A DNA stretch of 64,000 nt from Anadara kagoshimensis (taxonomy: Eukaryota; Mollusca; Bivalvia; Arcoida; Arcidae). The stretch spans positions 1,727,721 to 1,791,720 of the forward strand of contig CM037868.1 of assembly GCA_021292105.1 (NCBI GenBank). Reading direction: 5' to 3'. Each line of letters begins with the position of its first letter. Position 1 is the stretch's first letter. Position numbers and translations under genes: made by a program. A model generated the notes under the pieces. That model was given only the letters and a program-made list of their open reading frames with translations, was not told where the DNA came from and did no database searches. Shown here in pieces: positions 9,261 through 63,639 of the stretch.

Positions 9261-12200
9261 ATGAGTTGCCTAGTTACTACTGAGGTTACAGGTAGCAATA
9301 CAACTTCAATTACAACAATTCCTGGAACGAATTCAACCTTGATGACAACAGTACAAACATTATCAGCGTCATCACCGGGTCAGCAAACAGTCTCAACTAC
9401 AGCTACTGTCGTTACTGCAACAACACAAACAGTATCGTTAGCGTCGTCATGCAGACAACAAACAGCTTTAAACGCTTCTACCATTGTTACAGCAACAACA
9501 CAAATAGTGTCATCAGCAGCAGCACACGGACAGCAAACTACTGGTACAAACCTTACAGCAATAGCACAAATAATATCACCAACGTCATCATCTGTGCAGC
9601 AAACAGCGTCACCTTCAGCTACAGGCGGTACAACAACACAAACAGTCTTACCAGCGTCATCATCTAGGCAGCAAACAGCGTCACCTACAGCTACAGGCGG
9701 TACTACAACACAAACAGTCTTACCAGCGTCATCATCTAGGCAGCAAACAGCGTCACCTGCAGCTACAGGCGGTACTACAACAACACAAATAGTCTCACCA
9801 GCGTCACCATCTAGGCAGCAAACAGCGTCACCTACAGCTACAACCGGTACTACAGCAACACAAACAATATTACCAGCGTCATCATCTGGGCAGCAAACAG
9901 CGTCACCTTCAGCTACAGGCGGTAATACAACAACACAAATAGTCTCACCAGCGTCATCATCTAGGCAGCAAACAGCGTCACCTACAGCTACAACCGGTAC
10001 TACAACAACACAAACAGTATTACCAGCGTCATCATCTGGGCAGCAAACAGCGTCACCTACAGCTAAAACCGGTACTACAACAACACAAACAGTATCACCA
10101 GCGTCATCATCTTGGCAGCAAACGGTGTCAACTTCAACTGCAAGCGGTACTACAACAACACAAACTGTCTCGTCAGTGTCATCATCTGGACAGCAAACAG
10201 TGTCACCTGCAGCTGCAAGCGTAACAGCAGCAACACAAACAGCTATGACTTCAAGAATCGATGTTACTCCAGAGGAGACAAATTTCTTAAGATTTACCTC
10301 CCTTGTGTTGAAGATCGGACCACGTGCTGTAAGACATTTGTTTGATCTTCATAATGATCCAAATCACCTGGATAAAATAATTTTGGATAACAGACAAAAA
10401 TTGGAGAATCTCCTGAATAACAGGATCATTAACAAAGATCACTGGAGCGTTCTTTTTCCAGGAAACAGTAAGATGCCTTTATTTTATATTTATTAAAATA
10501 TCTGAATATTAATCATATCAGTCGTATAAATTGTTTTATTTTATAACTCGATTTCCATCGATATGTTATTACTGTGCATAAATGCTATTTTGAACCTGCA
10601 TATATTGCGATTAAATTTTTTTTTTGTATTTTTTGTTAACATTTTAATTATATTTCAACACAGAAAAGAGAAAACTAAGTGGAAAAAATATGTTTTCTTT
10701 TAAATCAGTCTATGTGAGTGTGTGCCTACCATAAATTTTGCCATCTTTTCAATGTACAATATTCCATGTACAAAATAGCCTTTATGCAGAGTAGAGCACG
10801 TGATTCTAGTAGTATTACTTATGATATTATCGAATGCAGTATGAAAATAGTACTCACATAAGCTTTCAGGTCAAATGATTTTAAAAACGAATTATTTGAA
10901 TTTCAGTTTTTTTTTTTTACTTTATTTCTTATTTTAATTTAGATTTATTTGAAATGAAATGCTCCGAAAAGCATAAAAAGAAATTGAAATGTGATTCAAA
11001 TGAACAGTTATGTAAATTTATGTATCTGGATATTGTTTTAAAACATTTTGTTGAACAGGTGTATTTTTACCTTTCAGGGCATGCCTCTTCTAAAATGTTT
11101 GATCTTACCTTAATGATAGCATTCCTTCGTGATATAACTGGTTTGAAGGCTCCGAAATCTGAATGGTACAGACTGCCAGATCCTAATGATCGCAGTGTTG
11201 AGGCTGCTCTAGTAAGAATAAAATATTACAGAAACAAAGTAGCACATGCTGTATCCTGTTCTGTAAATACACACGATTTCAACATAAATTGGACTGACCT
11301 TAGTGAGGTATATATTATAATTATTTTTCATCTAATTTGCGGTACAGACGTAGTTCTGCATGCTCTAAATTCGGCTAAAATGATGTATTTAATATATATA
11401 ACCGCCCGCATGTGCCTAGTCGGTAAGGTCGTATCACCGGTCTATTATCGATATCAGACCGGCCATTTCAAACATGTAGATATTTTCACTAAGTCATTTT
11501 GAAAATCCTTACACGGCATCTTTTGACCTTGAATAATATTTGAATGCCGTTGATTGAAGTATTTGAAGAAATGCATTTTTCATATACAGTAATTGGTGTT
11601 ATTTTTTATCAAATGGGTGTAATGTATTTTTTCTTTTGTTCCGGTCCTAGGTTTTTCGGAGTATCTTTTCATATCGCACTTTCGTTTATGACGCAAAATA
11701 ATCCAACCTGCCTAAAAGGCCAACTCTATATAAGGACCACTTGCGTATAAAGATCAGTAGAATTGTATCCCAATTGTTCTTTATTCATATTATTTGAATC
11801 TGTATTTATTACTGGTTTCCTTGTGTGGTCTTTATAGACAAGTTTAACTGTAAAATTGTTGGCACATTGCTGAAGATGAATCTTTGTGTTGTTGATTTTT
11901 AAATTTTTAATACAAGAGCTAGTGTAACATTATTGGAGACAATGGCTAGCGGCGAGTAAATTTTGCCTTTTTATTTTTTTTAAAAGGCAAGATCGCAAGT
12001 TTGTGCACATGTGAAGTAAATTCGACCAAGTCTGTCGCGACAGTATTTCACAATATCAGTTTAATAATCTATAGTTGAACAGACAATGTATTTTATATTG
12101 TTTCGAGTATGAAACAGCTATGTCACGTTAAAGGCATTTATTTATGACAAAGGTTTGTTTTGTATTGGTTACCAAGTTATAAGAAGTCGTTTAACTATAT

Positions 12201-15200
12201 AAATCACACACCACCTTGTGTCAATATTTTTCATACAACAATGATATCATTCGGGGACTTTTTAATGAAGATAAATAATAATAATTAATATAATGCTTTT
12301 TTGCAGGCTATTATACGCTTAGGCGGAGAGAGGTTTAAATCAGAAATCTCGGCGATGTTGTGTGCAGCTTTAGATGCGTCATATCAGGATCTTTACAGAG
12401 AACTCAAGGCTATAAAGGAAGACATCATTCCATCAAATATAAAATGTATGTATTTTGAAGCCTATAACAAATTTAATAATGCAGTCAAACCTGTCTATAA
12501 GTCTATAGAGGTCATCCAAGGGAACCAGTAAAAGTAGTCTTTATGGGCAGGTGACCTCATATACGGGTTTAAGTAATATGAATATGTATGTCCGAACTTT
12601 TGGAACTGGCAAGTTAGACACTTGGACTTCCACAAGGGAAGTGAGGCCTAGTGCTCCGGAAGTGTAAACGACTCCTGTTTAGCTAGCTACAGCCGTCACG
12701 TGTGTAATCAAAATTGTGTGAATGGAACATGGGGAAATGGGGCGTCAAATACATCCAGGACAATACTGGGCACTGATACATCAAACTTATCAATTATACT
12801 TTGATGACGACCATAAAACTTTTTGAATGTATTTTGAACTTTTGGGTATCTTTTCAACATCTTAGTTAAACAATCTAACAATTATGCTTCATAATTTTGG
12901 TCTTAGTACTAGTCATGGTGAATTGTTTTCCGAAACAACTCTTTAGTGCTGTAAAATTGTCACTGGTATACTATGTAATTAGTTCAAACAGCTGATTTTC
13001 ATCTGATCTTATGGAACAAGTAAGGCCTGGATTTGTCAGTCTGTAAACGTTAATTGTTAGTATTAGCTCGACCTAATAGCAACAATTCACCAGCAAATAT
13101 ACTAATCTATGTCCAAATCACAATCTCAAAGCATAGTTAAAACTGACAACTAAGTTGAAGCCCTGAACATTGGTTTTCTTGAAAAAATACGAGGTTCAGC
13201 ACAAACATACCTTGCTTGCTCTATACCACTGCAAAACCCAAAAAAACCTTCAGCTGGTAGTGTACTCGCTCAAAAAGTAGGTTGTAGGTTTGATCCCCGA
13301 TCGGGTATGACTAAAGACTTGAAGTGGGTAGTGACTGCTCTTTTGCCAAGCACTCAGCGTTACGAACTGAAAGACTCGGATTTTTTCCTGATGTGAACTT
13401 AAAATAATTAAAGTTCCGTGTCACAGTAGGCATGTCAAGATAAAAAACAATGCTGTAAAATTTTATCAGCGCAATTACAGACAAAACTTTGGCACCTTTA
13501 CCTTCGCCTATAACTGGCAGCGTCTTGATATAAGTGAAATATTCTTGACAACGACGTTGAACGCCATTACTCAACTAGACTCCTACAAGATTAGGATCAG
13601 TGAAAGAACTTATACAAAGCAAACATTCAGAACATATCAGGGTATAATTTAATTTTCAGTTTTAATGGATGTTAAAGTTCAAGGCATGGCGATGGAAGAC
13701 AAGACCTTTATTTCTACTAAAGCAACAAAGTCCGTGAAAGATGCTGTAGATCAGTATAGTATCGTCATGGTGACTGGTCCTCCAGGGTCAGGAAAGACAG
13801 CTACGGTAAACCATATAGCTTTGCAGCTGCAGGAACAAGGATACAGAATTTGTCCTGTTGTATCGACAAAAGAAATCATTGAGTATTGGATGCCGGAATC
13901 ACCTCAGGTATTTGTTTTTAATGATCCTTTTGGCATTCATGCCATAAATCAAAGTGAATTACACCAATGGACGAATCAACAGGAAAGGTTGAGCACGTGT
14001 TTCCGGTATAGCAATATGAAAATCTTAGCAACTATACGGTCACATATCATTGAAGATGAGCAGATATCCGGAAATATACTTCCGTCGTCTGATCTCCAAA
14101 CAATATCTTTGGTTAATGATGAAAGTGTGTTAACTGATGATGAAAGATTGAAAATATTCAATGCGCATGCCAAGTTTAAAAAAAGAGATGATTTGAAAGC
14201 AATGGGTGTTGAAATTCAAAACTTTTCGATATCTTGTTTTCCATTATTATGCAGAATATACACTTCTGATGAAGAATCTAAATTCTCAGTTAAGGATTTT
14301 TTTCAGAAACCACTTTCTGTTATCAGTGAAGATCTTGATAAATTTAAAATCAATGATCCTATACGGTATTTCTGCCTTTTGTACTGTATGATAAATGACA
14401 ACAGTTTAAACACAGATCTACTCAGTATTAATGTCGAGAGCAAAACAATCGAAACGTCTCGTACAATACTGCTTGAAAAATGTAAGGTTTCGACATCTTT
14501 GTCAAGGGAAGAAATTAAATCAAAAATGGATACTTTACTTAACACTTATCTTAAACTAGAGGGTAAATGTTATCATTTTATTCATGATATAATACATGAC
14601 GCTGTTATTAGGCATGTTAATAGTCTGCCATCAGATTGGAAACGAATAATACTGCAGCACTGTGGTCCCAAGCTTTTAAATGAACGAATACGGTTAAATG
14701 CTTTTGAATACCCATATCACGGGAATGGATACCTGCTTTTAAATTCCGATTTAGGATCAGTATGGAGCGAAAGAATACTACAGGATATGATTGGCGACCA
14801 CATGAACTGGAATCACATGGTCAACAACACTACGCTTTGTACTGAGAATGGCGACATGTTGTTACTAAAATCATTTAAATGCATGGATCTAACGGAGCTT
14901 CAGAGGTTCATATTATTGTCACACCCATGTAAGGCTTTATTCCCCATCCTAGAAGCATCAAACGAACTCAAAATCATTCACAACATGGAATTAGATTTAA
15001 ATAAAGTGACAATATTGCACCTTATCATTTGTCTCGGGTTAAAGAATTGTCTAGAACACATTCTGAAAACAACATTTCCCATTACTTTTAATCATATAAA
15101 AGTGAACTTACTATCAGTAGCTTGCATAATGGGTAAGGCTGATGTAGTTGAGATGTTAGTTTTGAATGGATATAGCGCAAATTTCTGTACTCCGAGTAAT

Positions 15201-16766
15201 CATTCGGTTTTATTTTTATCGTCTTTTTTCGGTCACTCTGAAGTAGTTGAGGTATTATTGAAACATAATGCTAACATAAATCAATGTGACAAGAATGGTC
15301 AGTCACCTTTATTTATATCATCCATGTTTGGTCGTGTTGAAGTGGTTAAGGTACTACTGGAACATAAAGCTGCCATAGATCTATGTGACAAGTATGGTAC
15401 ATCACCTTTATTTATGTCATGTTATAGCAGCCATGTTGAAGTAGTTAAGGTATTATTGAAACACAAAGCTGATAAAGCTCAATGTAACAGGTTTGGTCAG
15501 TCACCTTTATTTATATCATCTGTACGTGGCAATGTTGAAGTAGTGGAGGTACTACTGAAACATAAAGCTGACAAATATCAATGTGACATGTATGGTCAGT
15601 CACCTTTATTGATATCATCTTATTGCGGCCATGTTGAAGTGGTTAAGGTACTACTGAAACATAAAGCTGACATAGAACAATGTGACAAGAATGGTCAGTC
15701 ACCTTTATTTAGAGCAATTGCTGAAGGCAATGTTGAAGTAGTTAAGGTACTACTGGAACATAATGCTGATATAGTTCAATGTGACTTAGACCGTAACTCA
15801 CCTTTATTTATAGCATCTGATAAGGGCCATGTTGAAGTAATTAAGGTACTACTGGAACATAAACCTGATATAGTTCAATGTGACACTTGTTGCATATCGC
15901 CTTTATGTAGAGCATCTCAAAACGGTCATGCTGAAGTAGTTAAGCTACTACTGAAACATAAAGGTCAATGTGACAAGAATGATCAGTCACCTTTATTTGG
16001 AGCAATTGCTCACGGCAATATTGAAATAGTTAAGGTACTGCTGGAACATAATGCTGATATAGTTGAACGTGACAAGTATGGTCGGACACCTTTATGTAGA
16101 GCAATTGATCACGGCAATGTTGAAGTAGTTAAGCTACTACTGGAACATAATGCTGATATAGGTCAATGTGAAAGTGATATTATGTCACCTTTATTTATAG
16201 CAATTTTTTCCGGCAATGTTGCAGTACTTAAGGTACTACTGGAACATAATGCTGATATAGGTCAATGTGACAAGAATGGTCAGTCACCTTTATTTATAGC
16301 ATCTATGCGTGGCCGTGTTGAAATGGTTAATGTGCTACTGAAACATAAAGCTGACATAGGTCAATGTGACAAGAATGGTAAGTCACCTTTATTTATAGCA
16401 TCTGATCAGGGCAATGTTGAAGTAGTTAAGGTTCTACTGGAACATAATGCTGATATAGGTCAATGTGACAAGAATGGTCAGTCACCTTTATTTATAGCAT
16501 CTATGCGTGGCCGTGTTGAAATGGTTAAGGTGCTATTGAAACATAAAGCTGACATAGGTCAATGTGACAAGAATGGTAAGTCACCTTTATTTATAGCATC
16601 TGATCAGGGCAATGTTGAAGTAGTTAAGGTGCTACTGAAACATAAAGCTGACATAGATCAATTTGACAAGTATGGTATGTCACCTGTACTTATAGCATCT
16701 AAAAGCGGACATGCTGAAGTGGAACAATTACTACGCAGTTACAAATTAAACACCAACTGTGAATGA
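9261..16766 (+). CDS. HEPN - nSTAND NTPase - ankyrin repeat protein (intact copy)
   Basis: I predict four coding exons, 9261-10467, 11078-11307, 12307-12445 and 13660-16766; all junctions are GT/AG and phases match, giving 1560 aa. Residues 1-340 are Ser/Thr/Gln-rich with twelve repeats of about 25 aa beginning QQT. Residues about 345-525 match the DZIP3-like HEPN domain, including RNKVAH (Arg454, His459), the HEPN ribonuclease-type motif. Walker A GPPGSGKT is at 565-572, a Walker B-like VFVFNDPFG follows (Asp614), then KILATIRSHI as a sensor strand: an nSTAND-type NTPase. From about 1039 to the end there are 16 ankyrin repeats of 33 aa (one shortened). No signal peptide or membrane segment is seen, so a cytosolic place is inferred. 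An AG acceptor near 9192 suggests an upstream untranslated exon. Such proteins are expanded in molluscs and are presumed innate-immune sensors; the function is inferred, not shown. Confidence 0.85.
9370..10245 (+). repeat. 72-75-bp coding tandem repeat (Ser/Thr/Gln-rich)
   Basis: Twelve units of 24-25 codons starting CAGCAAAC (QQT). The central units share long identical stretches such as CAGCGTCATCATCT, showing recent slippage. Copy B has only six. Confidence 0.85.
11704..11860 (+). mobile_element. MITE remnant in intron 2 of copy A
   Basis: CAACCTGCCTAAAAGGCC at the left, TAGAATTGTATCCCAATTG inside and GTTTAACTGTAA at the right match the MITE at 59,133-59,303. The left inverted terminus is damaged. 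Copy B lacks it. Confidence 0.55.
12479..12575 (+). mobile_element. truncated MITE just after exon 3 (copy A)
   Basis: GCAGTCAAACCTGTCTATAA starts about 34 bp after the exon-3 splice donor. The same element at the same place in copy B (32,335) is longer. Copy A has lost the 3' half together with about 2.4 kb that B holds. Confidence 0.65.
12580..12800 (+). repeat. dispersed repeat R1 (TCCACNAGGGAAGTGAGG core)
   Basis: The unit runs from a TATGTCCGAA-like start through CACTTGGACTTCCAC, GGGAAGTGAGGCC, AGCTAGCTACA and GGGCACTGATACATC. Related copies lie at 34,965-35,240, 60,325-60,580 and, as fragments, at 50,765-51,135, 58,795-58,960 and 59,445-59,570. It is non-coding and probably a SINE- or MITE-like family. 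Confidence 0.65.
13245..13575 (+). mobile_element. tRNA-derived SINE, family 1, 85 bp before exon 4
   Basis: A tRNA-like head (CAGCTGGTAGTGTACTCGCT, then a B-box-like GGTTTGATCCC) is followed by the family core GACTTGAAGTGGGTAGTGAC and GCCAAGCACTC, and a tail through CCTTCGCCTATAACTGG. It resembles the tRNA-headed SINEs with a conserved central domain described from bivalves and gastropods. The same insertion is in copy B at 35,685, so it predates the duplication. Confidence 0.75.
15198..16740 (+). repeat. 99-bp ankyrin-coding tandem array, copy A
   Basis: Sixteen units of 99 bp (one of about 90 bp near 15,960) share DNA such as CACCTTTATTTAT and GTTGAAGTAGTTAAGGTACT almost unchanged. 16,276-16,473 and 16,474-16,671 form a nearly identical 198-bp dimer, which indicates recent unequal exchange or gene conversion. 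Confidence 0.9.
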
Positions 16767-17108: not shown

Positions 17109-17541
17109 CTTACTTACTTATCCTCTTCGCGCCTGGAGGCGCATAAGGCTGTAACCAGAGATCTCCATTCAACTCGGTCCTTGGCAATCTTTTCCATTTC
17201 ACCCCAGGTCTTTCCAAGGCTCTTAAACTCACTGGTGATAGTTCTTCGCCAGGTCTCCTTTGGTCTTCCTCGATTCCTTTTGCCATCAGATGGTGTCCAT
17301 TTTGAGGAGACTCTTGCAATGTTGTTCGGGTCCCTTCGTGACATGTGCCCGAACCAACGAAGTCTTCTTTGCCGAATAAGGTCTGTGATGCTAGTCTGGC
17401 CAGTTGTTTGGTAAAGTACCTCGTTTGAAACTTTTCTCGGCCAGTATATTCTACATATTTTTCTCAGGCTCTTAGTGTGGAATCCTGAGAGTCTCTGGTT
17501 GTCTTTCTGTGTTGTTCTCCAGCATTCAGCTTTAAAATTTT
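17109..17541 (-). mobile_element. 5'-truncated LINE with target-site duplication
   Basis: Read on the - strand, one open frame encodes the end of a LINE ORF2: QRRLRWFGHMSRRDP, then GKRNRGRPKETWRRT, then WGEMEKIAKDRVEWRSLV and a stop at 17,114-17,116. The 3' tail is a short TAAG repeat. Flanks carry AAAGATTTA at 17,100-17,108 and 17,542-17,550. Copy B shows the empty site near 39,630-39,645, so it is a post-duplication insertion. Confidence 0.9.
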
Positions 17542-18758: not shown

Positions 18759-20625
18759 GCTCACCTGAGCCGAAGGCTCAGATGAGCTATTGCAATCTAT
18801 CACCGTCAGTCGTCCGTCGTGCGTCGTCAGTCGTGCGTCGTGTGTAAACTTTACATTTTAATCTTCTCCTCCAAAAGTACTAGGCCATATTTGATGAAAC
18901 TTGGTGATTATCATGCCTGGGTAACAGCCTTTCAAAATTGTGTTCGGGGTTTGGCCACGCCCAACAAAATGGCCATTGTTACTAAAAATAGCAAAAAAAC
19001 CAAAAAAATCTTCTTCTCTGAAACCAAAAGGTGCAGGCAAATTTTGATTAGATATTTGGATTCAGCATACCTAGGAACATTAAAATTGTGTTTTTCATGA
19101 AAATTAGACGAAAAATAGGTTACGCGTTGTTTGTGTAAAATTACGTAATTTTTAAAATGAGACATTTATTGTTATAACTTCATAACGGCTGAAGATAATT
19201 GTATGGAGCTTTCACTGTTGATCTTGTCTTGCAATTTTCTTCCAATTGATATCAAGGTCGAAGGTCAAGGTCATGTCCCAGTTTTTGACCTTTGATAAAA
19301 AAAGCTATTTTTTTAACATTTCTTGTGATAATGGCGTAGGATTTTCATTTATTTGTAGATATTGACATGACGATCATTTTAATACATAGATCAGGGTCAT
19401 GGGTTCAAAGGTCAAGGTCACAAGAATACCAAAGTAGTTAATTATATACAAAACTATGAATTTTTTGTATAGGCATGTATATCAGAATATTGTAGGTAAT
19501 GGCACAATGGTCATTTTGATATATGAATAAAGGTCATGGGTTCAAAGGTCAAGTTCACAGATGTAAACAAGTACTGAAATGGTTAATTATCTCAAAAACT
19601 ATAAACTTTATGTATAGGCATGTATATAGAAATATTGTAGGCATTAGCCTAATGATCATTTTGATATATGAATGAAGGTCATAGGTTCAAAGGTCAAGGT
19701 CATAGAATTGAACGAATACTTAAATGGTTAATTATCTCAAAAACTATAAACTTTTTGTATAGGCATGTATATTGGAATATTGTAGATATTGGCCTAACGA
19801 ATATTTTGATATATGAATAAAGGTCATAGGTTCAAAGGTCAAGGTCATAGCTGCAAACGAATATTTAAATGGTTAATTATCTCAAAAACTGTAAACTTTT
19901 TGTATAGGCATGTATATTAGAATATTGTAGGCATTTGCACAGCGATCATTTTGATATATGAATGAAGTTCATAGGTTCAAAGGTCAAGGTCATAGATGCA
20001 AACTAATACTTAAATGGTTAATTGTCTCAGAAACTATAAACTTTTTGTATAGGCATGTATATTAGAATATTGTAGGTATTGGCCTATCGATCATTTTGAT
20101 ATATGAATGAAAGTCATAGGTTCAAAGGTCAAGGTCATAGAGCAAACGAATACTTAAATGGTTAATTATCTCAAAAACTATAAACTTTTTGTATAGGCAT
20201 GTATATTGGAATATTGTAGGCATTTGCACAGCAATCATTTTGATATATGAATGAAGTTCATAGGTTCAAAGGTCAAGGTCATAGATGCAAACGGATACTT
20301 AAATGGTTATATATCTTAAAAACTATAAACTCTTTGTATAAGCATGTATATTGGAATATTGTAGGTATTGGCCTAATGCACATTTTAATATACAGATATT
20401 TTAGCTGTTTATAAATAATATATTGTAGCTAGACTTTAAATATGTTATATATAGCATACTTATATAATAATTATTATAATTAATTTGCAAAAATACTTGC
20501 ATATTATTGGCCCTTACTGCTGAAAATTTTGATATTCTCTTTTATTAATGTCATTTACCATTGAACCTCTTAATAAGATATGTACTCTTCCTCAGGTGAG
20601 CGTTAAGGCCCATGGGCCTCTTGTT
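18759..20625 (+). mobile_element. hairpin-ended element with 145-bp internal array (only in copy A)
   Basis: It begins with the hairpin AGCTCACCTGAGC/GCTCAGATGAGCT and ends CTCAGGTGAGCGTTAAGGCC followed by CATGGGCCTCTTG. Inside, seven units of about 145 bp (19,404-20,410) each carry GGTTCAAAGGTCAAGGTCA or a near match. No protein is coded. Copy B has an uninterrupted site here (about 41,255). A second, inverted copy of the family is at 45,850-47,245. Confidence 0.8.
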
Positions 20626-28944: not shown

Positions 28945-31900
28945 TAATAACCGTCACAGATACTTGATACACTGTTTCATCAATGTTTTGGTATAGTAGG
29001 ATTTATTTTAAAACTTTGATTGTTTAAATTGAGCTTTACTTGAAGTTTGTAAATTCATCTAATTTGTGAAAGAATATTAGACAAAAATACAACAAACACT
29101 TGTCACGTGACGACCTCGCTCGATAATCTATACAAATTCGTGAGAAATCTATGTACTCATTGTTTGCGCAAAATGGGCAGCATATTACGATAAAAAAGAC
29201 AAAAGGTAAATAACAAATAGTTTTGTCTTCAAGAGTTAAAACAGTCATATTACAGTTCTAATCAAACACAAACATACCAACTCATGTCCGAATCACAATC
29301 CAGATGCAAAGTAAAAATATGAGTCGTTGATAAACTTTATGATACAGGTAAACAAAATTAACCTGTTCGCTTGAACTGTCATAAGGAATATTCATATAAA
29401 AGGATATAGATAAACAACTTTGACTGTCCTTTTTACCTTTCATTAGGAATATTCATGAAGGAGGGTCCACTAAATAAATAGAGAGTGTTCGGATTCACAG
29501 TTAACATATATACATATTGTCTATGATTAGTGTTCACATCTGGTAGACGATATATACACATATTACTTAAATTTATCTGTCCATAATAAATATTTAAATC
29601 AAAGGTCAAGTGGACAGGTCAATGTTGTTTACCTATACATACAATACATGGGAAGTGCTAGGATTCGAAAGTAAATTTTGTATACAGACAAGGCCCATGA
29701 ATGTTGTTCTCATTGAGACCGCTCTGTAGATCTACACACAGTACAATTGTATAGATACATTATATTAATTTGTCCATGCATGGTATAGGAAAACATCATT
29801 GACCTGTCCACTAGACCTTTTATTTTGATATTTGTCATTGTTATTAATATGAAATTAACACGTATGATCCCTATACATAAATGCGCTGGGTCTTAAAATG
29901 TTTGATTTTAATGATGGTGAGAGAGTTTGGGAACTAGATAAATAAGGCTTTACACAATACACACAGCATGTTTTTTATCAATTTCATAACAAAATTAATT
30001 ATATTTTTAAGGATCATTGTTATGCAATATATAACGATTTCATTGTATAGATTGGCTGATACACCCATTTTGTATGACATAACAGCAAAATGAGTTGCCC
30101 AGTTACTACTGAGGTTACAAGTAGCAACACAACTTCAATTATAAAAATTTCTGGAATAAATTCAGTCTTGATTACAACAGTACAAACAATATCAGCGTCA
30201 TACCCGGTGCAGCAAACAGTCTCAACTACAGCTACTGTCGTTACTGCAACAACACAAACAGTATCGTCATTGTCGTCATGCGGACAACAAACAGCTTTAA
30301 ACGCTTCTACCATCGTTACAGCAACAACACAAATAGTATCATCAGCAGCAGCACCCGGACAGCAAACTACTGGTACAAACCTTACAGCAATAGCACAAAT
30401 AATGTCACCAACGTCATCATCTGTGCAGCAAACAGTGTCACCTTCAACTACAGGCGGTACTACAACAACACAAACTGTCTCACATGCGTCATCATCTGGG
30501 CAGCAAACAGTGTCAACTTCAATTGCAAGCGGTACTACAACAACACAAACTGTCTTACCAGGGTCATCATCTGGACAGCAAACAGTGTCACCTGCAGCTA
30601 CAAGCGTAACAGCAGCAACACAAACAGCTATGGCTTCAAGAATCGATGTTACTCCAGAGGAGACAAATTTCTTAAGATTTACCCCCTTGTGTTGAAGATC
30701 GGACCACGTGCTGTAAGACATTTGTTTGATCTGCACAATGATCCACACCACCTAAATGAAATAATTTCTGATCTTCGACAAAAATTGGAGAATCTTCTGA
30801 ATAACAAAATCATTAACAAAGATTACTGGAGCGTTCTTTTTCCAGAAAACAGTAAGATGCCTTTATTTTATTTTTATTAAAATATCTGAATATTAATCAT
30901 GTCAGTCGTATAAATTGTTTTATTTTATTACTCGATTTCCATCGATATCATATTACTGTCTATAAAGGTTTGAACATGCATATATTGCGATTGAATTTTT
31001 ATTTTAATTTTTTGTTAACATTTTAATAATATTTCAACACAGAAAAGAGATACCTAAGTGGAAAAAATATGTTTTCTTTTAAATCAGTATATGTCAGTGT
31101 GTGCATACCATACATTTTGCCATCTTTTCAATGTACAATATTCCATGTACAAAATAGCCTGTATGCACAGTAGAGCACGTGATTCTAGTAGTATTACTTA
31201 TGATATCATCGCATGCAGTATATAAAATAGTACTCACTTAAGCTTTTAGGTCAAACGTTTTTAAAAACGAATTTTTTGAAGTTTAGTTTTTTTTTTACTT
31301 TATTTCTTATTTGAATTTAGATTTAAATTAAAATGATATGCTCCGAAAAGCATGAAAAAATTGAAATGTGATTTAAATAAACAGTTATGTTAATTTATGT
31401 ATCTGGATATTGTTTTAGAAACTTTTTTTGAACAGGTGTATTTTTTACCTTTCAGGGCATGCGTCTTCTAAAAAGTTTGATCTCACCTTGATGATAGCAT
31501 TCCTTCGTGATATAACTGGTTTGAAGTCTCCGAAATCTGGATGGTACAGACTGCCAGATACTAATGATCGCAGTGTTGAGGCTGATTTAGTAAGAATAAA
31601 ATATTACAGAAACGAAGTTGCACATGCTGTATCCTGTTCTGTAAATACACATGATTTCAACATAAGTTGGACTGACCTTAGTGAGGTATATATTATAATT
31701 ATTTTTTCATTTAATTTGCAGTACATACGTAGTTCTGCATGCTCAGATTCGGCTAAAATGATGTATTTAATATATATAACCGACCGCACATACCCAGTCG
31801 GAAAAGTCGTATTACCGGTTTAATATCGATATCAGACCGGCCATTTCAAACATGTAGATATTTTCACTAAATCATTTTGAAAATTCTCACACGGCATATT

Positions 31901-32334
31901 TTGACCTTAGCTTTAAAAGGAAAACTATTTGAATGCCGTTGATTGAAGTATTTGAAGAAATGCATTTTTCATATACAGTAATTGGTGTTATTTTTTTATC
32001 ATAGGTGTAATGTATTTTTTGTTTTAAATGGTGAAAATTTAAGTATAAGATAAACGGAATAAAACATGCTGAAATCTATTTTATATGCTAAAGCCCTCGC
32101 TCTGATATTGAGCTCTCGGTCTGATATATAATAATAATAAATATAATGTTTTTTTTTGTAGGTTATTATACATTTAGGTGGAGAGAGGTTTAAATCAGAA
32201 ACCTCGGCGATGTTGTGTGCAGCTTTAGATGCGTCATATCAGGATCTTTACAGAGAACTCAAGGCTATGAAGGAAGACATCATTCCATCGAATATAAAAT
32301 GTATGTATTATGTAGGCTTTATCAGATTTTATAA

Positions 32335-32505
32335 TACAGTCAAACCTATCTATAAAGGTTATCCAAGGGAACCAGTAAATGTAGTCCTTATGGGCAGATG
32401 GCCTCTATATACAGGTTTAAATAATATGAATAAAAAATAATTTGGATACAATTATTTTGGCCTTTATAAGCAGGTGGCCCTTATATATAGGTGGCATGTT
32501 GGAAA
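32335..32505 (+). mobile_element. MITE just after exon 3 (copy B)
   Basis: Starts TACAGTCAAACCTATCTATAAAG, 35 bp after the splice donor; contains CCAAGGGAACCAGTAAATG and a decayed right terminus near GGCATGTTGGAAAGG. Same family as 50,260-50,438. Confidence 0.65.
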
Positions 32506-32509
32506 GGTA

Positions 32510-34960
32510 TAACCCTTAACTTTCAAGTCCCCTTTATATAACATTTGAAAAACAGCAATTTTGACAGTATTATTACATGTACTTAATTTTTTGTGAACTT
32601 ATTTATCGAACGACCTCTATATAGAACGATATTCAAATGACATAATTATAAACGCATAAATTTAGCATAAATAAAGTGAACATCGAGTGATGAAAATAAA
32701 AAACAAATGAAAATATTTAGGGACAATTCAATTGATTGAAATTGATTAAATAAAAAGAAAATACCGGGGAAGGGTTTTAAATCTTAATTCTATGTGATTA
32801 CCAAGCACTTTAAAAAACAAATGTACCAGATACAATTGATTCTAAACTGATGATACTAAAATATCAAAAAATTAGGCAAAAATTGATTTTTGTGAGTGTA
32901 TTTAAAGATTACTTATTTTTTGTGCAATGTCTATGTTCTACTTATTTATAATAACATATTTACATTCATATGTTTGATAGTATTAAACTCTGTTTGAGAC
33001 CAAATTAAGTTATACGACTATAATTATATTTGCTAATTTGACGTCACTTGATTGGCAGTTCCAGCAATTGGAATTGCATACTGTACACAACAGTGTTTTA
33101 AATTTATTATAGGATTCAAAAACGACAATTAGATTTTCAAAAATTGTTAAATGTAAATATAACCATTGAACTGTCTTGAAATAGCGTTTATAGTTCCATA
33201 ACTTCCATTGCCGTGCAAAGCCAACTAATCATAACGCGCTAGCGCTAGCGCGTATTATACAGTTTGCTTTGCACGACAAAGGAAGTTAAAGCACTATAGA
33301 TGCCAATTGTAGACAGTTCAATGTTAAAATTTGCTTTGTTTTCAATGTCTGATAACATTTCTTCTAACTGATTAAAAGTTTTGTGTCTGAAAAATTATAA
33401 AGGGAGATAAATGTAGCTCTGTCAAATGTTCAACCCCTCGGGTGAGATTTCAATATCCTACATTAATACTCATAATGGATTCTTTTTCATCCATTTTGAT
33501 GCTAATACTTAGCTTCTAATTCGATTTACATAGACATTGACGCAATAATTGTACAATTTAACTTTGTTATTCAACATTCTACTTTTAAAATATCACCATC
33601 TTTAGAAAAATGCACCTGATTTTGGTTTTTACAATGAGTATAAATAAACTTAAAAACAAAGTTATTCATTGTTAACTCCCTTAATAAATATTTGAAACGC
33701 ACTCAATTTTCTAAAGTTAAAACTTGGATTTTTCCGCAAAATAACTCCATGTTCCCAACATGATAACGTCTAGCAATAGTTCTTTATTTATGACATCTCC
33801 GTTGGTATTTCCAGCACTAATTTGCGCGCGCGACTCATACAGATAGAAATATTCACCATGGGTATTTTCAATGTAATATGTCTATATTACATGACTTGTC
33901 ATAGGAGATTACAGGGTCTTTCGTTATTTTGTGGAGCTAAATTGACATAGGTTTGGTATAGTCTTATGTCACATGTAAGTTACGATTATAATTATTATGA
34001 ATCATGACTAGATTTGTTAAGGCTAAAAACTGCATTTACTGAGTTTCATATCTTCTGGTTAAGGCAAATAATTACATTAAATTTTATTGTTTTGACTACT
34101 TGCTAAAATAACTTAAGATATTTGTGCCATTTTGGCGGTATACTTTATACATTAATTGTCTTTGAGTGAGGGAGATATGAACAAACAAAGGCAATAAATT
34201 GTTTATAATGCCCAAAAGATAGCCATGGTAATATGAATGACAGGAAGAAAGGGAAATATTTTAAAAAAGACCGTCTGAAAACACCAGTCCTTATCGGATT
34301 CATTTCTTTTTCTCCTATATAACTCATCGGAGGAAAACGCTAGAACGTCATGACCGATTCTCTATCAATGACGTCATATCATTGTGACGTCATGGTGTGT
34401 TCCGAAAGGAATACACGATGTTTTCTCAACCCTGATCACATGATCCAACGATCCAATCAAATTACAGATGTTATCGTATTTATCCTAATGTGCTATTTGG
34501 TGTTGTTTTATAGGAAGATTATTAGGTTTATTTAGCTGGCCCGATATAAAACAATGTGAGCGTTTGGTTTCACAATTTTTATTTAAGCACTGCTACTGAG
34601 AAATTATATTTGGAAACAGGCGTGTTGTGCTGGAAAAGTAACACTGGTGTATAACATGCAATTTGGAATACCATAGCTTATGTATTCGAATGAGTCAAAA
34701 TCATAATCCGTGTTGTTTTTACATCTGTGGCTATGTCATTGTTTAAGTTATTTCTGAAAAATATGGATTCATATTGGATATTGAGTTTGGGAACCATCGT
34801 TGAAGGTGAGGATCATGATTGTATGATCTCGTATATAAAACTAGTTTAAGACTGAGTATTTAATCAGTTTTGATATTTTCTTGAAGTGTCCAAATCGAGG
34901 TCAAGGCAAAAAAGGCCATGTCAATTTTTGTGTTTTTGTCATTATGTAATTTAAAAAAAC
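32510..34960. other. intron 3 sequence present only in copy B
   Basis: About 2.4 kb with no counterpart in copy A. No coding motif is seen; it holds the large palindrome at 33,164-33,323. It was either inserted in B or deleted from A together with the 3' half of the MITE; the latter fits the truncated MITE in A. Confidence 0.5.
33164..33323. repeat. 160-bp imperfect palindrome with a perfect 20-bp core
   Basis: The core at 33,234-33,253 is its own reverse complement (ACGCGCTAGC then its mirror). Paired blocks outwards: GTGCAAAG/CTTTGCAC, AACTTCC/GGAAGTT, TATAGT/ACTATA, TTGAACTGTCT/AGACAGTTCAA. Confidence 0.8.
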
Positions 34961-34964
34961 CAAA

Positions 34965-35240
34965 ACATACTAATCCATGTTCGAATCTCAATCCAAAAGC
35001 AAAGTAGAAACTTTTGAAACTGACAAGTTAGGTTAGACACGTGGATTTCCACCAGGGAAGTGAGGTCGGGTGCTCTGGAATTGTAAGCACTTCCTGTTTA
35101 CCTAGCTACATCCGCCACATGTGTAATTAAAATTATGTTAAAGGAACATTGAACTATGGAACGTCAAATATATCCAAGGCAATACTGGGCACAGAGACAT
35201 CAAACTTATCAACATTACTGTGATGACGGCCATAAAACTT
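34965..35240 (+). repeat. dispersed repeat R1 (copy B, intron 3)
   Basis: AACATACTAATCCATGTTCG, CACGTGGATTTCCACCAGGG, CCTAGCTACATCCGCCAC and GGGCACAGAGACATC: a fuller version of the sequence at 12,580-12,800. Confidence 0.65.
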
Positions 35241-35684
35241 TTTGAATATATTTTGAATTTTTGGGTATCTTTTTAACATCTTAGTTGAACAATCTAACAA
35301 TTTTGCTTTCATAATTTTAGTCTAAGTACTACTGATGGTAAATTGTATTCCGAAACAACTCTTTAGTGCTGTAAAATTAACACTTGTATATTATGTAATT
35401 AGCTCAAACGGCTGATTTTCGTCTGATCTTATGAAACAAGTAAGGCCTGCATCTATCAGTCTGTAAACGTTAATAGTTCGTAATTCGCTCGACTTAATAG
35501 CAACAATTCAGCAGCAAATATACTAATCCATGTCCAAATCACAATCTCAAAGCATTTATAAAACCGACAACTAAGTTGAAGCCCCGAGCATTGGTTTTCT
35601 TGAAAAATACGAGGTTCAGCTCGAACATATCTTGCTTGCTCTATACCACTGCAAAACACTGAGAAAGCCTTCAGCTGGTAATGT

Positions 35685-36000
35685 ACTCGCTCAAAAAGTA
35701 GGTGGTATGTTTGATTCCCGACCGGGTACGACTCAAGACTTGAAGTGGGTAGTGACAGCTCTTTCGCCAAGCACTCAGCATTACGAACTGAAAGACACTG
35801 ATTTTTTCCTGATGTGAACTTAAAATAATTAAAGTTCCGTGTCACAGTAGGCATGGCACGATAAAAAACACTGCTGTAAAATTTTATTAGCGCAATAACA
35901 GGCAAAACTTTGGCACGTTCACCTTTGCCTATAACTGGCGACGTCTTGATATAAGTGAAATATTCTTGACTACGACGTTGAACGCCATTACTCAACTCGA
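35685..36000 (+). mobile_element. tRNA-derived SINE, family 1, before exon 4 (copy B)
   Basis: Orthologous to 13,245-13,575, with GTTTGATTCCCGACCGGG as the B-box region. It ends about 80 bp before the exon-4 acceptor. Confidence 0.75.
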
Positions 36001-37614
36001 CTCCTACAAGATTAGGATCAGTGAAAGAACTCATACAGAGCAAACATTCAGACTATCAGGGTATAATTTAATTTTCAGTTTTAATGGATGTTAAAGTTCA
36101 AGGCATGGCGATGGAAGACAAGACCTTTATTTCTACTAAAGCAACAAACTCCGTGAAAGATGCTGTAGATCAGTATAGTGTCGTCATGGTGACTGGTCCT
36201 CCAGGGTCAGGAAAGACAGCTACGGTAAACCATATAGCTTTGCAGCTGCAGGAACAAGGATACAGAAATTGTCCTGTTGTATCGACAAAAGAAATCATTG
36301 AGTATTGGGTGCCAGAATCACCTCAGGTATTTGTTTTTAATGATCCTTTTGGCATTCATGCTATAAATCAAAGTGAACTACATCAATGGACGAATCAACA
36401 GGAAGGGTTGAGCACATGTTTTCAGTATAGCAATATGAAAATCTTAGCAACTATACGGTCACATATCATTGAAGATGAGCAGATATCCGGAAATATACTT
36501 CAGTCGCCTGATCTCCAAACAGTCTCTTTGGTTAATGATGAAAGTGTGTTAACCGTTGATGAAAGATTGAAAATATTTAATGCGCATGCCAAGTTTAAAA
36601 AAAAGAGATGATTTGAAAGCAATGGGTGTTGAAATTCAAAACTTTGCGATATCTTGTTTTCCATTATTATGCAGAATATACACTTCTGATGAAGAATCTA
36701 AATTTATAGTCAAGGATTTTTTTCAGAAACCACTTTCTGATATCAGTAAAGATCTTGAAAAATTTAAAATCAATGATCCTATACGGTATTTCTGCCTTTT
36801 GTACTGTATGATAAATGACAATAATTTACACACAGATCTACTCAGTATTAATGTCGAGAGCAAAACAATCGAATCGACTCGTAAAATACTGCTTGAAAAA
36901 TGTAAGGTTTCCACATCTTTGTCAAGAGAAGAAATTAAATCAAAAATGGATACTTTACTTAACACTTATCTTAAACTAGAGGGTAAATGTTTTCATTTTA
37001 TTCATGATATAATACATGACGCTGTTATTAGACATGTCAATGGTCTGCCATCAGATTGGAAACAAATAATACTGCAGCACTGTGGTCCCAAGTTTTTAAA
37101 TGAACGAATACGGTTAAATGCTTCTGAATACCCACAAGACGAGGATGGATACCTGCTTTTAAATTCCGATTTAGAATCAGTATGGAGCGAAAGAATACTA
37201 CAGGATATGATTGGCAACCACACGAACTGGAATCACATGGTTAACAACACTACATTATGTACTGAGAAAGGCGACATGTTGTTACTTAAATCATTTAAAT
37301 GCATGGATCTAACGGAGCTTCAGAGGTTCATATTATTGTCACACCCATGTAAGGCTTTTTCCCCCATTCAAGAAGCATCAAACGATCTCAAAACCATTTA
37401 CGGCATGACATTAGATTTAAATAAAGTGACAATATTGCACCTTATCATTTGTCTCGGATTAATGAATTGTCTAGAACACATTCTGAAAGCAACACCTCCC
37501 ATTACTTTTAATCATATTAAGGTGATCTTACTTATAGTTGCTTGCATAATGGGTAAGGCAGATATAGTTGAAATGTTGCTTTTGAATGGATATAGTGCGA
37601 ATTTGTGTGCTCCG

Positions 37615-39240
37615 AGTGATCATTCAGTTTTATTTTTATCGTCTTTTTTCGGTCACGTTGAAGTAGTTAAGGTATTATTGAAACATAATGCTGCCATAAA
37701 TCAATGTGACAAGTATGGCCGGTCACCTTTATATATGTCATCTATGTCTGACCGTGTTGAAGTAGTTAAGGTACTATTGAAACATAAAGCTGACAAAGAT
37801 CAATGTGACAAGTATGGTCGGTCACCTTTATTTGAAGCATCTTATAAAGGCCATGTTGAAGTAGTTAAGGTACTACTGGAACATAAAGCTGAAATATATC
37901 AATGTGACAAGGATGGTCAGTCACCTTTATTTATATCATCTATGCGTGGCCGTGTTGAAGTAGTTGAGGTACTACTGGAACATAAAGCCGACAAAGATCA
38001 ACGTGACATATCTGGTGAGTCACCTTTATTTATATCATCTATGTATGGCCATGTTGAAGTAGTTGAGGTACTACTGGAACATAAAGCCGACAAAGATCAA
38101 CGTGACATATCTGGTGAGTCACCTTTATTTATATCATCTATGTATGGCCATGTTGAAGTAGTTGAGGTACTACTGGAACACAAAGCTGACATATATCGAT
38201 GTGACATATATAATCAGTCACCTTTATTTATATCATCCATGTTTGGCCATATTGAAGTAGTTAAGGTACTACTGGAACATAAAGCCGACAAAGATCAACG
38301 TGACATATCTGGTGAGTCACCTTTATTTATATCATCTATGTATGGCCATGTTGAAGTAGTTGAGGTACTACTGGAACACAAAGCTGACATATATCGATGT
38401 GACATATATAATCAGTCACCTTTATTTATATCATCCATGTTTGGCCATATTGAAGTAGTTAAGGTACTACTGGAACATAAAGCTGACAAAGATCGATGTG
38501 ACAAGTATTGTCAATCACCTTTATTTATATCATCCATGTATGGCCATGTTGAAGTAGTTAAGGTACTACTGGAAAATAAAGCTGACAAAGACCAATGTGA
38601 CAAGAATGGTCGGTCACCTTTATTTATATCATCTATGCGTGGTCGTGTTGAAGTAGTTGAGGTACTACTGGAACATAAAGCTAAAATAGATCAAAGTAAC
38701 TATGATTGTCAGTCACCTTTATTTATTTCATCTGAGAATGGCCGTGTTGAAGTAGTTAAGGTACTACTGAAACACAAAGCTGACGTAAATTAATGTGACA
38801 TACATGGTCAGTCACCTTTATTTATATCATCCCTGTTTGGCCATATTGAAGTAATTAAGGTACTACTGGAACATAAAGCTGACAAAGACCGATGTGACAA
38901 GTATGGTCAGTCACCTTTATTTTTATCATCCAAGTTTGGCCATATTGAAGTAGTTAAGGTACTACTGGAACATAAAGCTGACAAAAATCGATGTGACAAG
39001 AATGGTCAGTCACCTTTATTTATTCATCTAATTATGGCCGTGTTGAAGTAGTTAAGGTACTACTGAAACACAAAGCTGACGTAGATCAATGTAACATATA
39101 TGGTCAGTCACCTTTATTTATATCATCCATGATTGGCCATATTGAAGTAGTAAAGGTACTACTGGAACATAATGCTGACAAAGATCGATGTGACAAGTAT
39201 GGTAAGTCACCTTTACTTATAGCATCTAAAAGGGGTCATG
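37615..39240 (+). repeat. 99-bp ankyrin-coding tandem array, copy B
   Basis: About 17 units. Units containing CAACGTGACATATCTGGTGA recur at about 38,000, 38,098 and 38,296, and those containing CGATGTGACATATATAATCA at about 38,197 and 38,395, giving a 198-bp dimer repeated almost exactly. These variants are absent from copy A. Confidence 0.9.
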
Positions 39241-39293
39241 CTGAAATTGAAAAAAATACTACGCTGTCATAAATTAAACACCAATAGTGAATG

Positions 39294-40281
39294 AAGCTAT
39301 TGCAAATCGTGATATACGTAAGCCCTTTTAATGTGGAAACTATTTCTTCAAGGCTTGGTAAGTCTGTTCTGACTCAGTTCTGATTGACTTATATAAATGA
39401 AGCTGTAGAATATGTCATATCAAAATATCAGGAGTACAACGATTAATTGCTAAATGTTAACTCCCATACACTCAACAACTACAGTGTATATTAAAACAAT
39501 TACCATGTAAATAGAAAAATAGTGTTTTGAAATGCTTACATTTAAAACGAAACTGCAACGAACAGGTATTTATTTCTCTACAAAGGTTTTATCGACATAG
39601 TTTATTAAAAATTATTCATTTAAATTAAAAGAAGAAAAAAAGATTTTAAAAAGCTAAAATATTTAAAAACAATCTTCAAGATATGAAAAATTAGTTCCTA
39701 AAAGACATGAAATTTCAAGTATATTGATGTTATATTAAGAAAGATATCTAAGTTTGAATTACACCACCCATTCAAAGCATGTTTTTATCACTAAAATGTG
39801 ATCGGACTATTCCTGTAAATCCCGACAATTTGATTCCGGTGTCATATAATGGGTTGATCCGCCTCGGGAATGTTCCTGATAAAAGATCAAGCGTACATGT
39901 CAATATTATTTATCTATACCCATATAAAGACAAAAGCATTGATCTATCCGCTTGACCACAAAAGTACTTCTTTCGTCTACATACTGAGTGAAAAGTTTAA
40001 TTAAGTGCAATATATACGTATTAACTTCAAGCTTAAATACATTCCATTTGAAAGATGGATCCTTTTATATGAATATTTCTGATAAAAATCAAGCGGAGAG
40101 GTCAGCGTTATTTGACTATAAATATGTATAGGCAAAAAAACTTTGACCTGTCCGCTTGACCTTTCATTTAAATATTTATCACGGACCAAGAACATCTGTG
40201 TATAGCGAACACATATGTTTATTCTGTATATATCATGAGATATACTCACTTCATAGTGTAAACCTATGCTCTTTGTGTGTG
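39294..40281. other. 3' flank of the degenerate copy
   Basis: Collinear with 16,767-18,170 minus the LINE insertion. The empty LINE site is near 39,630-39,645. GGTCAAGCGGACAGGTCA-type motifs lie near 40,090 and 40,142. No gene is seen. Confidence 0.55.
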
Positions 40282-58344: not shown

Positions 58345-58539
58345 CTGAAATTAAGAAAAGAATACACGTTTATGTTTGGAATATACAGGCTTAAAGTCAA
58401 GACTCAGAGAAATGGTAAGCAGCTGAAGAATTTCATATTGATGATAGTTATGGTATTGTCTTTGTGCTTTGAGCGAAAATATTTTCTTTCAGAAAGACCA
58501 CTGAATGTCAAATATTTTATAATGTTAACTTGTTTAAAC

Positions 58540-63081: not shown

Positions 63082-63639
63082 CTACAATAATAACGATAAA
63101 AAGTACAGATCTGTCGAAAGTTTAACACCGACCCATCGAAAGCGAGTAAAATTGATTACAGCTGAGTGACCGAGTTATGGATAGCTAGCATTGGACGAAA
63201 ACTCGCGGAAAGATAGATAGAAGCTTCCGAAAATTTGTCGTGTTATAGCTATTGAGGGGCCGTGATTTATACATGTTAAACTTTACAACAGGTTTGTACT
63301 GTAGATAACGAATTTGTCTCATTACCACATGCAATGTACATACAACATGGGTTTGGTTCATAGGTGCATCAGTGAAAAATTAAGTCTCTGGTACAGAGTT
63401 CCTTTTGCAAATACTGAAACAACTTTATAATTCGCAAATCCAAAACTTAACCGCTAGGTTGCTTAGATCATGAATCGGCTAACTGATTTGAGAGAGAGTT
63501 TGTCATCGCTAAGGATCCAATTTCGATCGGACAGAATTTATCCAGTGGGAGAAATATAATTTCTTATTTTGTTTACAAGAGATCCGTTGTTTAACTCCAA
63601 GTATTTCAGTTTCCTCTACCAGCAAAAATGGGTAATTGC

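What the first reader, a model, noticed from the sequence alone, without database searches (positions are those of the whole stretch)
9261..16766. Animal HEPN - STAND NTPase - ankyrin protein with an RNase-type motif
The spliced gene joins a Ser/Thr repeat stalk, a DZIP3-like HEPN domain that keeps RNKVAH (Rx4H, the HEPN ribonuclease signature), an nSTAND P-loop NTPase with Walker A and B, and 16 ankyrin repeats. HEPN plus STAND is a standard build of prokaryotic abortive-defence proteins, and ankyrin array plus HEPN nuclease is the build of vertebrate RNase L. This could be an invertebrate ligand-sensing ribonuclease or an adaptor. Seen: motifs and splice phases. Known: HEPN and STAND family roles. 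Inferred: immune sensor/effector function.
Basis: partly seen in the sequence, partly recalled or inferred. Interest (0 to 1): 0.75.

Follow-up and report, generated by a model that had tools for sequence, protein, structure and literature searches.

The report
HEPN–STAND–ankyrin receptor-like animal gene
This is a real spliced animal gene, one of a large tandem family in what is probably a bivalve genome, that joins a likely RNA-cutting domain, a molecular switch and a fast-changing ankyrin sensor; the kind is already known from oysters and corals, but what it senses and cuts has not been tested.

Summary
Four GT-AG exons at 9261-16766 (+) give a 1560-aa protein. Pfam places HEPN_DZIP3 at 367-508 (E 5e-37), nSTAND3 at 542-698 (E 1e-27) and an ankyrin array at E 5e-115. 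A second, damaged copy lies at about 29.0-39.6 kb. The window's genome holds at least 121 HEPN_DZIP3 matches. Of 20 loci fetched at about 10 kb, 17 show HEPN, nSTAND3 and ankyrins in this order.

RNxxAH is kept in 26 of 26 copies that match exon 2. HEPN and nSTAND exons are under purifying selection (median Ka/Ks 0.24-0.30). The ankyrin array diverges most, above all at positions that I recall as ligand-contacting. Best reading: an intracellular NLR-like receptor with ankyrin sensor, STAND switch and HEPN RNase effector.

The kind is in print: DZIP3-type HEPN fused to ankyrins or NACHT, expanded in oyster (PMC3710099, PMC9646362). Different here is nSTAND3 in place of NACHT. RNase activity, ligand and expression are untested; the structure model was too poor to use.

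The parts
9261..10467 (+). Exon 1: Ser/Thr/Gln-rich N-terminal region with a 75-bp (25-aa) tandem repeat, then the first part of the HEPN_DZIP3 domain
   Evidence: in-frame stop just upstream of the ATG; same ATG in copy 2
9565..10242 (+). 75-bp tandem repeat, 9.1 copies, coding the low-complexity N-terminal region
11078..11307 (+). Exon 2: HEPN core with R454-N-K-V-A-H459
   Evidence: Ka/Ks 0.30 against copy 2, family median 0.28
12307..12445 (+). Exon 3: C-terminal part of HEPN_DZIP3
   Evidence: Ka/Ks 0.34 against copy 2, family median 0.24
13660..16766 (+). Exon 4: nSTAND3 NTPase (Walker A GPPGSGKT, Walker B-like VFVFNDPFG), helical linker region, ankyrin array, stop
15239..16701 (+). Ankyrin-coding 99-bp tandem array, 14.9 copies
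28980..39632 (+). Second copy of the whole unit, introns included. It keeps RNEVAH and the splice sites, but has 1-bp indels in exon 1 and in an A-run of exon 4, an in-frame stop in the ankyrin array and further frame changes near its end: a damaged copy, or assembly errors

Best explanation
The gene encodes an intracellular NLR-like immune receptor in which sensor and effector are one chain. The C-terminal ankyrin array, which diverges most between near paralogs, binds a pathogen- or damage-derived protein. The nSTAND3 module then exchanges nucleotide and the protein oligomerises. Oligomerisation pairs the N-terminal HEPN_DZIP3 domains, so that Arg454 and His459 of two chains form a metal-independent RNase site that cuts viral and/or host RNA. 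Shown here: the domains, the motif and its invariance in the copies examined, selection on the exons, tandem expansion and divergence of the array. Inferred: ligand binding, oligomerisation, RNA cleavage and an immune role.
For: Pfam matches far above the curated cut-offs: HEPN_DZIP3 127.4 bits against 27, nSTAND3 96.7 against 27.2. RNxxAH in 24 of 24 fetched loci that match exon 2 plus both window copies; R, N, A and H are among 44 invariant columns of 179 in 24 rows. Median pairwise Ka/Ks: HEPN exon parts 0.30, 0.28, 0.24; nSTAND 0.26; linker 0.34. At least 121 HEPN_DZIP3 matches in the genome, nine of them within 0.75 Mb on the window's contig. In-register DNA identity to the nearest paralog L015 falls from 0.96-0.97 over nSTAND to 0.74-0.76 in mid-array and is 0.90 at the end. 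The five most variable of 33 repeat positions are 3, 14, 13, 2 and 5, which I recall as positions randomised in designed ankyrin binders. Published: DZIP3-type HEPN mostly keeps Rx4-6H and is fused to ankyrin and NACHT in animals (PMC3710099); Avs5 has the order Sir2, nSTAND3, C-terminal repeats (PMC12931631). Passages were read in both.
Against: No transcript, ligand, structure or RNase assay. The only structure model (nSTAND plus linker) had mean pLDDT 37.1 and supports nothing. A profile of eight HEPN rows finds no HEPN among solved structures. 5 of 47 HEPN_DZIP3 loci of this genome have Lys in place of the Arg, so some relatives may be non-catalytic. Variable ankyrin positions are also the structurally free ones, so their variability alone does not prove ligand selection, and I did not test the array for positive selection between paralogs. 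13 of 19 fetched exon-4 copies are interrupted before their last detected repeat, so many copies may be dead. The N-terminal 113 codons show no constraint between the two window copies (Ka/Ks 1.27).
Confidence: 0.55

Rival explanations
1. HEPN works as a non-catalytic RNA-binding or adaptor domain: the receptor senses through ankyrins (or senses RNA through HEPN) and signals by recruiting partners.
For: The survey proposes non-catalytic RNA-binding roles for HEPN domains that have lost the motif (PMC3710099, passages). Some HEPN_DZIP3 loci in this genome have KNDxSH (5 of 47).
Against: The copies that match exon 2 keep R, N, A and H in 26 of 26 cases, although exon 2 as a whole goes down to 41% identity.
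Confidence: 0.25
2. The expansion is mainly birth-and-death of tandem copies and pseudogenes, and this copy is a remnant without a present immune role.
For: Copy 2 and 13 of 19 fetched exon-4 copies are interrupted. Clustered and partly near-identical copies lie on C12, C7 and C3.
Against: Copy 1 is fully open, with splice sites shared by copy 2. Ka/Ks is well under 1 in HEPN and nSTAND. Other copies have exon 4 open for 1034 aa (L019, L020) and at least 1140 aa (L021), and open frames of 1428, 1040 and 939 aa hold nSTAND3 matches in the same C12 cluster. Some interruptions sit in a homopolymer and may be assembly errors.
Confidence: 0.12
3. The gene is cut wrongly: HEPN and nSTAND-ankyrin are separate transcripts.
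For: No RNA evidence was available. Intron 3 is 1.2 kb here and about 3.8 kb in copy 2, and exon 4 has an ATG at its very start (residue 528), so a separate nSTAND-ankyrin protein could be made. I did not scan for promoters.
Against: Exon order and strand are shared by paralogs down to about 41-51% identity; splice dinucleotides and phase are kept in copy 2.
Confidence: 0.08

Closest known systems
DZIP3/hRUL138-like HEPN proteins of animals (PF18738; Anantharaman et al. 2013, PMC3710099)
   Same: Same HEPN family by Pfam; Rx4-6H kept; fusions to ankyrin and to NACHT ATPase and lineage-specific expansion in the oyster are listed in its table 1
   Different: The passages that I read do not describe nSTAND3 with ankyrins in one chain
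HEPN-NACHT NLR-like proteins of pearl oyster (PMC9646362) and cnidarians (PMC8260672)
   Same: N-terminal HEPN_DZIP3, central STAND-type NTPase, C-terminal repeats, expansion in arrays; Rx4H the commonest motif in pearl oyster (131 proteins of the diploid genome)
   Different: Here the NTPase is nSTAND3, not NACHT, and the repeats are ankyrins, not LRR, TPR or WD40
Avs5 anti-phage STAND proteins (PMC12931631)
   Same: nSTAND3 as the central switch, repeats at the C terminus, effector at the N terminus
   Different: Effector is Sir2-like, not HEPN; C-terminal repeats are TPR, Sel1-like or PPR; bacterial
Vertebrate RNase L (KEN domain grouped with HEPN in PMC3710099; order of its parts recalled)
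   Same: Ankyrin array and HEPN-superfamily RNase in one protein
   Different: Opposite order, a kinase-like domain instead of STAND, a different HEPN family; no kinase or KEN among the matches shown here

Membership tests
HEPN_DZIP3 (PF18738) | Profile match above the curated cut-off over the whole domain | tested here: met
   127.4 bits against 27; profile positions 1-143 of 144
HEPN_DZIP3 (PF18738) | Rx4-6H motif | tested here: met
   RNKVAH 454-459; RNxxAH in 26 of 26 copies that match exon 2
HEPN RNase (activity) | Metal-independent RNA cleavage by a HEPN dimer | not testable with these tools
nSTAND3 (PF20720) | Profile match above the curated cut-off, with Walker A and B | tested here: met
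   96.7 bits against 27.2, positions 1-155 of 155; GPPGSGKT and a B-like FNDPFG
NLR (NACHT-LRR) | NACHT domain above cut-off | tested here: not met
   NACHT 16.0 bits against cut-off 26.7 for residues 527-1006
NLR (NACHT-LRR) | C-terminal leucine-rich repeats | tested here: not met
   ankyrins instead; no LRR among the 25 best of 31 families for the whole protein
RNase L | Kinase-like domain followed by KEN | tested here: not met
   neither among the Pfam matches shown for the three pieces scanned (25 of 31, 2 of 2 and 25 of 35 shown)
Avs5 | N-terminal Sir2-like effector | tested here: not met
   only HEPN_DZIP3 and a sub-threshold NLRC4_HD match in residues 1-526 at E up to 1
Ankyrin repeat array | Repeated 33-aa units above cut-off | tested here: met
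   Ank_2 376.8 bits; 15 regular units

The most novel reading that the evidence does not exclude
Bivalves keep a germline-diversified repertoire of receptor-nucleases: a constant HEPN-nSTAND3 half whose catalytic RNxxAH does not vary, joined to ankyrin arrays that turn over quickly by repeat exchange. An animal would then run many parallel one-chain 'detect and cut RNA' systems, working like bacterial HEPN-STAND and Avs defence, rather than signalling through caspase-recruiting adaptors as vertebrate NLRs do.
Probability: 0.3. Interest if true: 0.75.

Novelty: new member of a known kind. Interest (0 to 1): 0.45.

Why it matters
If the HEPN domains cut RNA on activation, the animal would have many self-contained receptor-nucleases, a solution that vertebrates reach with separate sensors and RNase L (recalled). 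The constant half, variable half and invariant motif make a clear experiment possible: force oligomerisation and look for RNA decay that needs Arg454 and His459. The nSTAND3 link also ties an animal protein family to a bacterial anti-phage switch family.

Tried and rejected
Structure: the AlphaFold job on nSTAND plus linker (alignment A1, three window pieces) gave mean pLDDT 37.1 and pTM 0.25. I rejected it and ran no fold search. PDB sequence searches: HEPN alone gave three chance-level matches, the HEPN profile only a designed protein at E 0.054, nSTAND only P-loop proteins and chance matches, best E 0.0017. Viral contigs with nSTAND and HEPN, and genome contigs with nSTAND, gave no relative. 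PADLOC: HEPN none; nSTAND best PDC-S73, E 1e-12, then P-loop matches; the array matches ankyrin-type models. NCBIfam: HEPN none; nSTAND only P-loop matches far below cut-off. Rejected: RNase L orthology, NACHT-LRR membership, outside mucin-like receptor.
Full report
OBSERVATION. Joining 9261-10467, 11078-11307, 12307-12445 and 13660-16766 on the + strand gives 1560 aa and a stop, with GT-AG at all three introns; RNKVAH is at 454-459 and Walker A at 565. Pfam: HEPN_DZIP3 367-508 (127.4 bits, cut-off 27), nSTAND3 542-698 (96.7 bits, cut-off 27.2), Ank_2 376.8 bits. The NTPase is nSTAND3 and not NACHT (16.0 bits against a cut-off of 26.7). The N-terminal 335 residues are T/S/A/Q rich, with a 25-aa repeat coded by a 75-bp tandem repeat. 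The most hydrophobic 19-residue windows of the protein (at most 1.84) lie in the ankyrin region and its start. A stop in frame 15 bases before the ATG (sequence) leaves no room for a signal peptide in this exon. I read this part as a disordered cytosolic tail, not as an outside stalk; an upstream alternative exon was not excluded. The repeat part has matches in L009-L022 and L024-L027 and none in L001-L008, L023 and L028 (L001-L008 are only about 3.3 kb, so some may end before it), so it may be a later addition. Its first 113 codons show no constraint between the window copies (Ka/Ks 1.27).

SECOND COPY. The whole unit, introns included, recurs at about 28980-39632 on the same strand. Splice sites and R/H are kept (RNEVAH). 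Over 190 HEPN codons Ks is 0.162 and Ka 0.047 (ratio 0.29); nSTAND 0.28; linker 0.71; over all 822 codons compared 0.48; introns differ by 0.075-0.109. Copy 2 has a 1-bp deletion in exon 1 and one extra A in an A-run of exon 4, an in-frame stop in the array and further frame changes near its end. It is probably a pseudogene, unless these are assembly errors.

FAMILY IN THE GENOME. The window lies at C12:1727721-1791720 of a 1,115,223,567-base assembly in 36 contigs. HEPN_DZIP3 gives 121 matches at E up to 0.001, with 150 of 217 candidates scored, and none in 14 named control genomes. Nine matches lie between 1.018 and 1.760 Mb of C12, two of them in the window; other clusters are on C3, C7, C12 and C17. 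nSTAND3 gives 22 matches for 22 scored out of 312 candidates, so the list is strongly capped and does not include the window's own copies; it also rings in 14 of 14 control genomes, over the cut-off in 7. By my reading of the two tables, 9 of those 22 have a listed HEPN_DZIP3 match upstream on the same strand within about 15 kb; 13 do not. I fetched 20 loci of about 9.9 kb, chosen from the HEPN list around matches to the exon-2 part. In 17 of 20 the HEPN exon 2, nSTAND and ankyrin parts match in the same order; in L009, L013 and L022 the stretch ends too soon to show the array, in L009 also nSTAND. A quick tree of 26 members puts copy 1 nearest to L015, about 68 kb upstream, and copy 2 nearest to L009 (SH-aLRT only, copy 1 in no strongly supported small group).

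MOTIF. Of the 28 loci held at that time, 24 match exon 2 and all 24 have RNxxAH (L001 and L003-L005 gave no exon-2 match and are not counted; in L002 and L006-L008, short stretches, ankyrins were not seen). With both window copies this is 26 of 26. In a profile scan of all 48 loci, which are 48 of the 121 matches and lean to the stronger ones, 47 gave a motif row: 42 have Rx4H and 5 have KNDxSH (L003, L004, L037, L038, L041); L048 gave none. Median pairwise Ka/Ks: exon 1 part 0.30 (179 pairs, 10 over 1), exon 2 0.28 (143 pairs, none), exon 3 0.24 (159 pairs, 6), nSTAND 0.26 (163 pairs, none), linker 0.34 (133 pairs, 2). Pairs were limited to Ks 0.03-1 and are not independent.

ANKYRIN ARRAY. 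Against L015, in-register identity per 300 bp of exon 4 is 0.96, 0.97, 0.97, 0.93, 0.94, then 0.79, 0.81, 0.74, 0.76, 0.83, then 0.90. Copy 2 shows the same dip (down to 0.75). Against the more distant L019 the fall is gradual (0.90 to 0.72). L019 and L020, a very recent pair (98.7% identical), show no marked dip. Over 191 repeats (153 distinct) from the window copies and 19 loci, the five most variable of 33 positions are 3, 14, 13, 2 and 5. These five, with 33, are the positions that I recall as randomised in designed ankyrin binders; position 33 itself is not especially variable. A permutation of the choice of positions gave 2e-5. A first pass on 24 window repeats gave 1e-5 (two of 15 repeats of copy 1 and two of 13 of copy 2 left out as irregular, interrupted or last in the array). 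Repeats are related to each other, and such positions are also structurally free, so this agrees with ligand-driven change but does not prove it.

INTACTNESS. Of 19 fetched exon-4 copies (L010-L028), 6 stay open to a stop after the array or to the end of the stretch (L013, L014, L019-L022) and 13 are interrupted before the last detected repeat. In distant copies such as L023 or L028 an extra intron could look like an interruption. The nSTAND3 search shows open frames of 1428, 1040, 939 and 632 aa in the genes of L014, L009, L013 and L022. One interruption is a length change of an A-run: 7 A in copy 1, 8 in copy 2, 6 in L010-L012. Copy 1 of the window is one of the intact ones.

LITERATURE (passages seen through searches inside the papers; none read whole). 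PMC3710099: DZIP3/hRUL138 HEPN, Rx4-6H 'mostly conserved', fused to TPR, Zn-ribbon, RING, ankyrin, CARD, NACHT, DEATH and LRR in animals, expanded in Nematostella, the oyster and Capsaspora; the authors note bacterial N-terminal HEPN with STAND NTPases. PMC9646362: pearl oyster, 194 of 202 proteins of the diploid genome with Rx4-6H, 131 with Rx4H, more than 50 NACHT proteins with N-terminal HEPN, read there as putative RNases and sensors. PMC8260672: 17 to 83 HEPN-NACHT proteins in anthozoans. PMC11592408: HEPN_DZIP3 among expanded families of the Manila clam. PMC12931631: nSTAND3 in anti-phage Avs5. PMC8195603: HEPN, STAND and ankyrin parts in bivalve TRADD-N proteins. PMC9334734: one Aplysia protein with NACHT, LRR, Death-like and DZIP3-type HEPN. 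PMC12165695: Cas13an HEPN resembles Swt1, DZIP3 and AbiD/F. I found no paper on nSTAND3 with HEPN and ankyrins in an animal in searches; ('nSTAND3') gave two papers, Avs5 and a mosquito virome paper, and one search listed 15 of 36. This covers only the open PMC library, and no supplement was read.

HOST. Matches fall on contigs C1 to C19; those whose length I saw measure 37.7 to 75.6 Mb. Size, contig count and this family suggest a bivalve, perhaps a clam; that rests on recall and was not tested.

MECHANISM. The best reading is a one-chain receptor: ankyrins sense, nSTAND3 switches and oligomerises, HEPN dimers cut RNA. Domains, motif invariance, selection and array divergence are shown; sensing, oligomerisation and cleavage are inferred.

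VERDICT. A real, intact member of a known kind of animal HEPN-STAND receptor, in an nSTAND3-ankyrin form that I did not find described. Interest 0.45.

Noticed in passing
window 55004-58369 (-) and 62810-63121 (-): Exons of a GH20 beta-hexosaminidase (CHB_HEX, GH20b, GH20 catalytic); an ORF at 62810-63121 looks by eye like the C-terminal end of a second, tandem hexosaminidase gene.
   Followed up: partly
window 19353-20392 (+) and 45852-46747 (inverted): A tandem array of about 145-bp units and an inverted relative of it about 26 kb away (self-BLAST).
   Followed up: no
window 17117-17539 (-): An ORF beside the gene that resembles, from memory, the tail of a LINE reverse transcriptase; no Pfam match.
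   Followed up: partly
G000 C12: L010, L011, L012: Three nearly identical family copies about 27.6 kb apart, all with 6 A in the exon-4 A-run that has 7 A in copy 1 and 8 in copy 2 of the window: a homopolymer hot spot, either real slippage or an assembly error.
   Followed up: partly
L003, L004, L037, L038, L041: HEPN_DZIP3 loci with KNDxSH in place of RNxxAH, perhaps a non-catalytic or altered subclass.
   Followed up: no
G000, one search list: 13 of 22 scored nSTAND3 matches have no listed HEPN_DZIP3 match upstream within about 15 kb, so nSTAND3 may be joined to other effectors in this genome.
   Followed up: no
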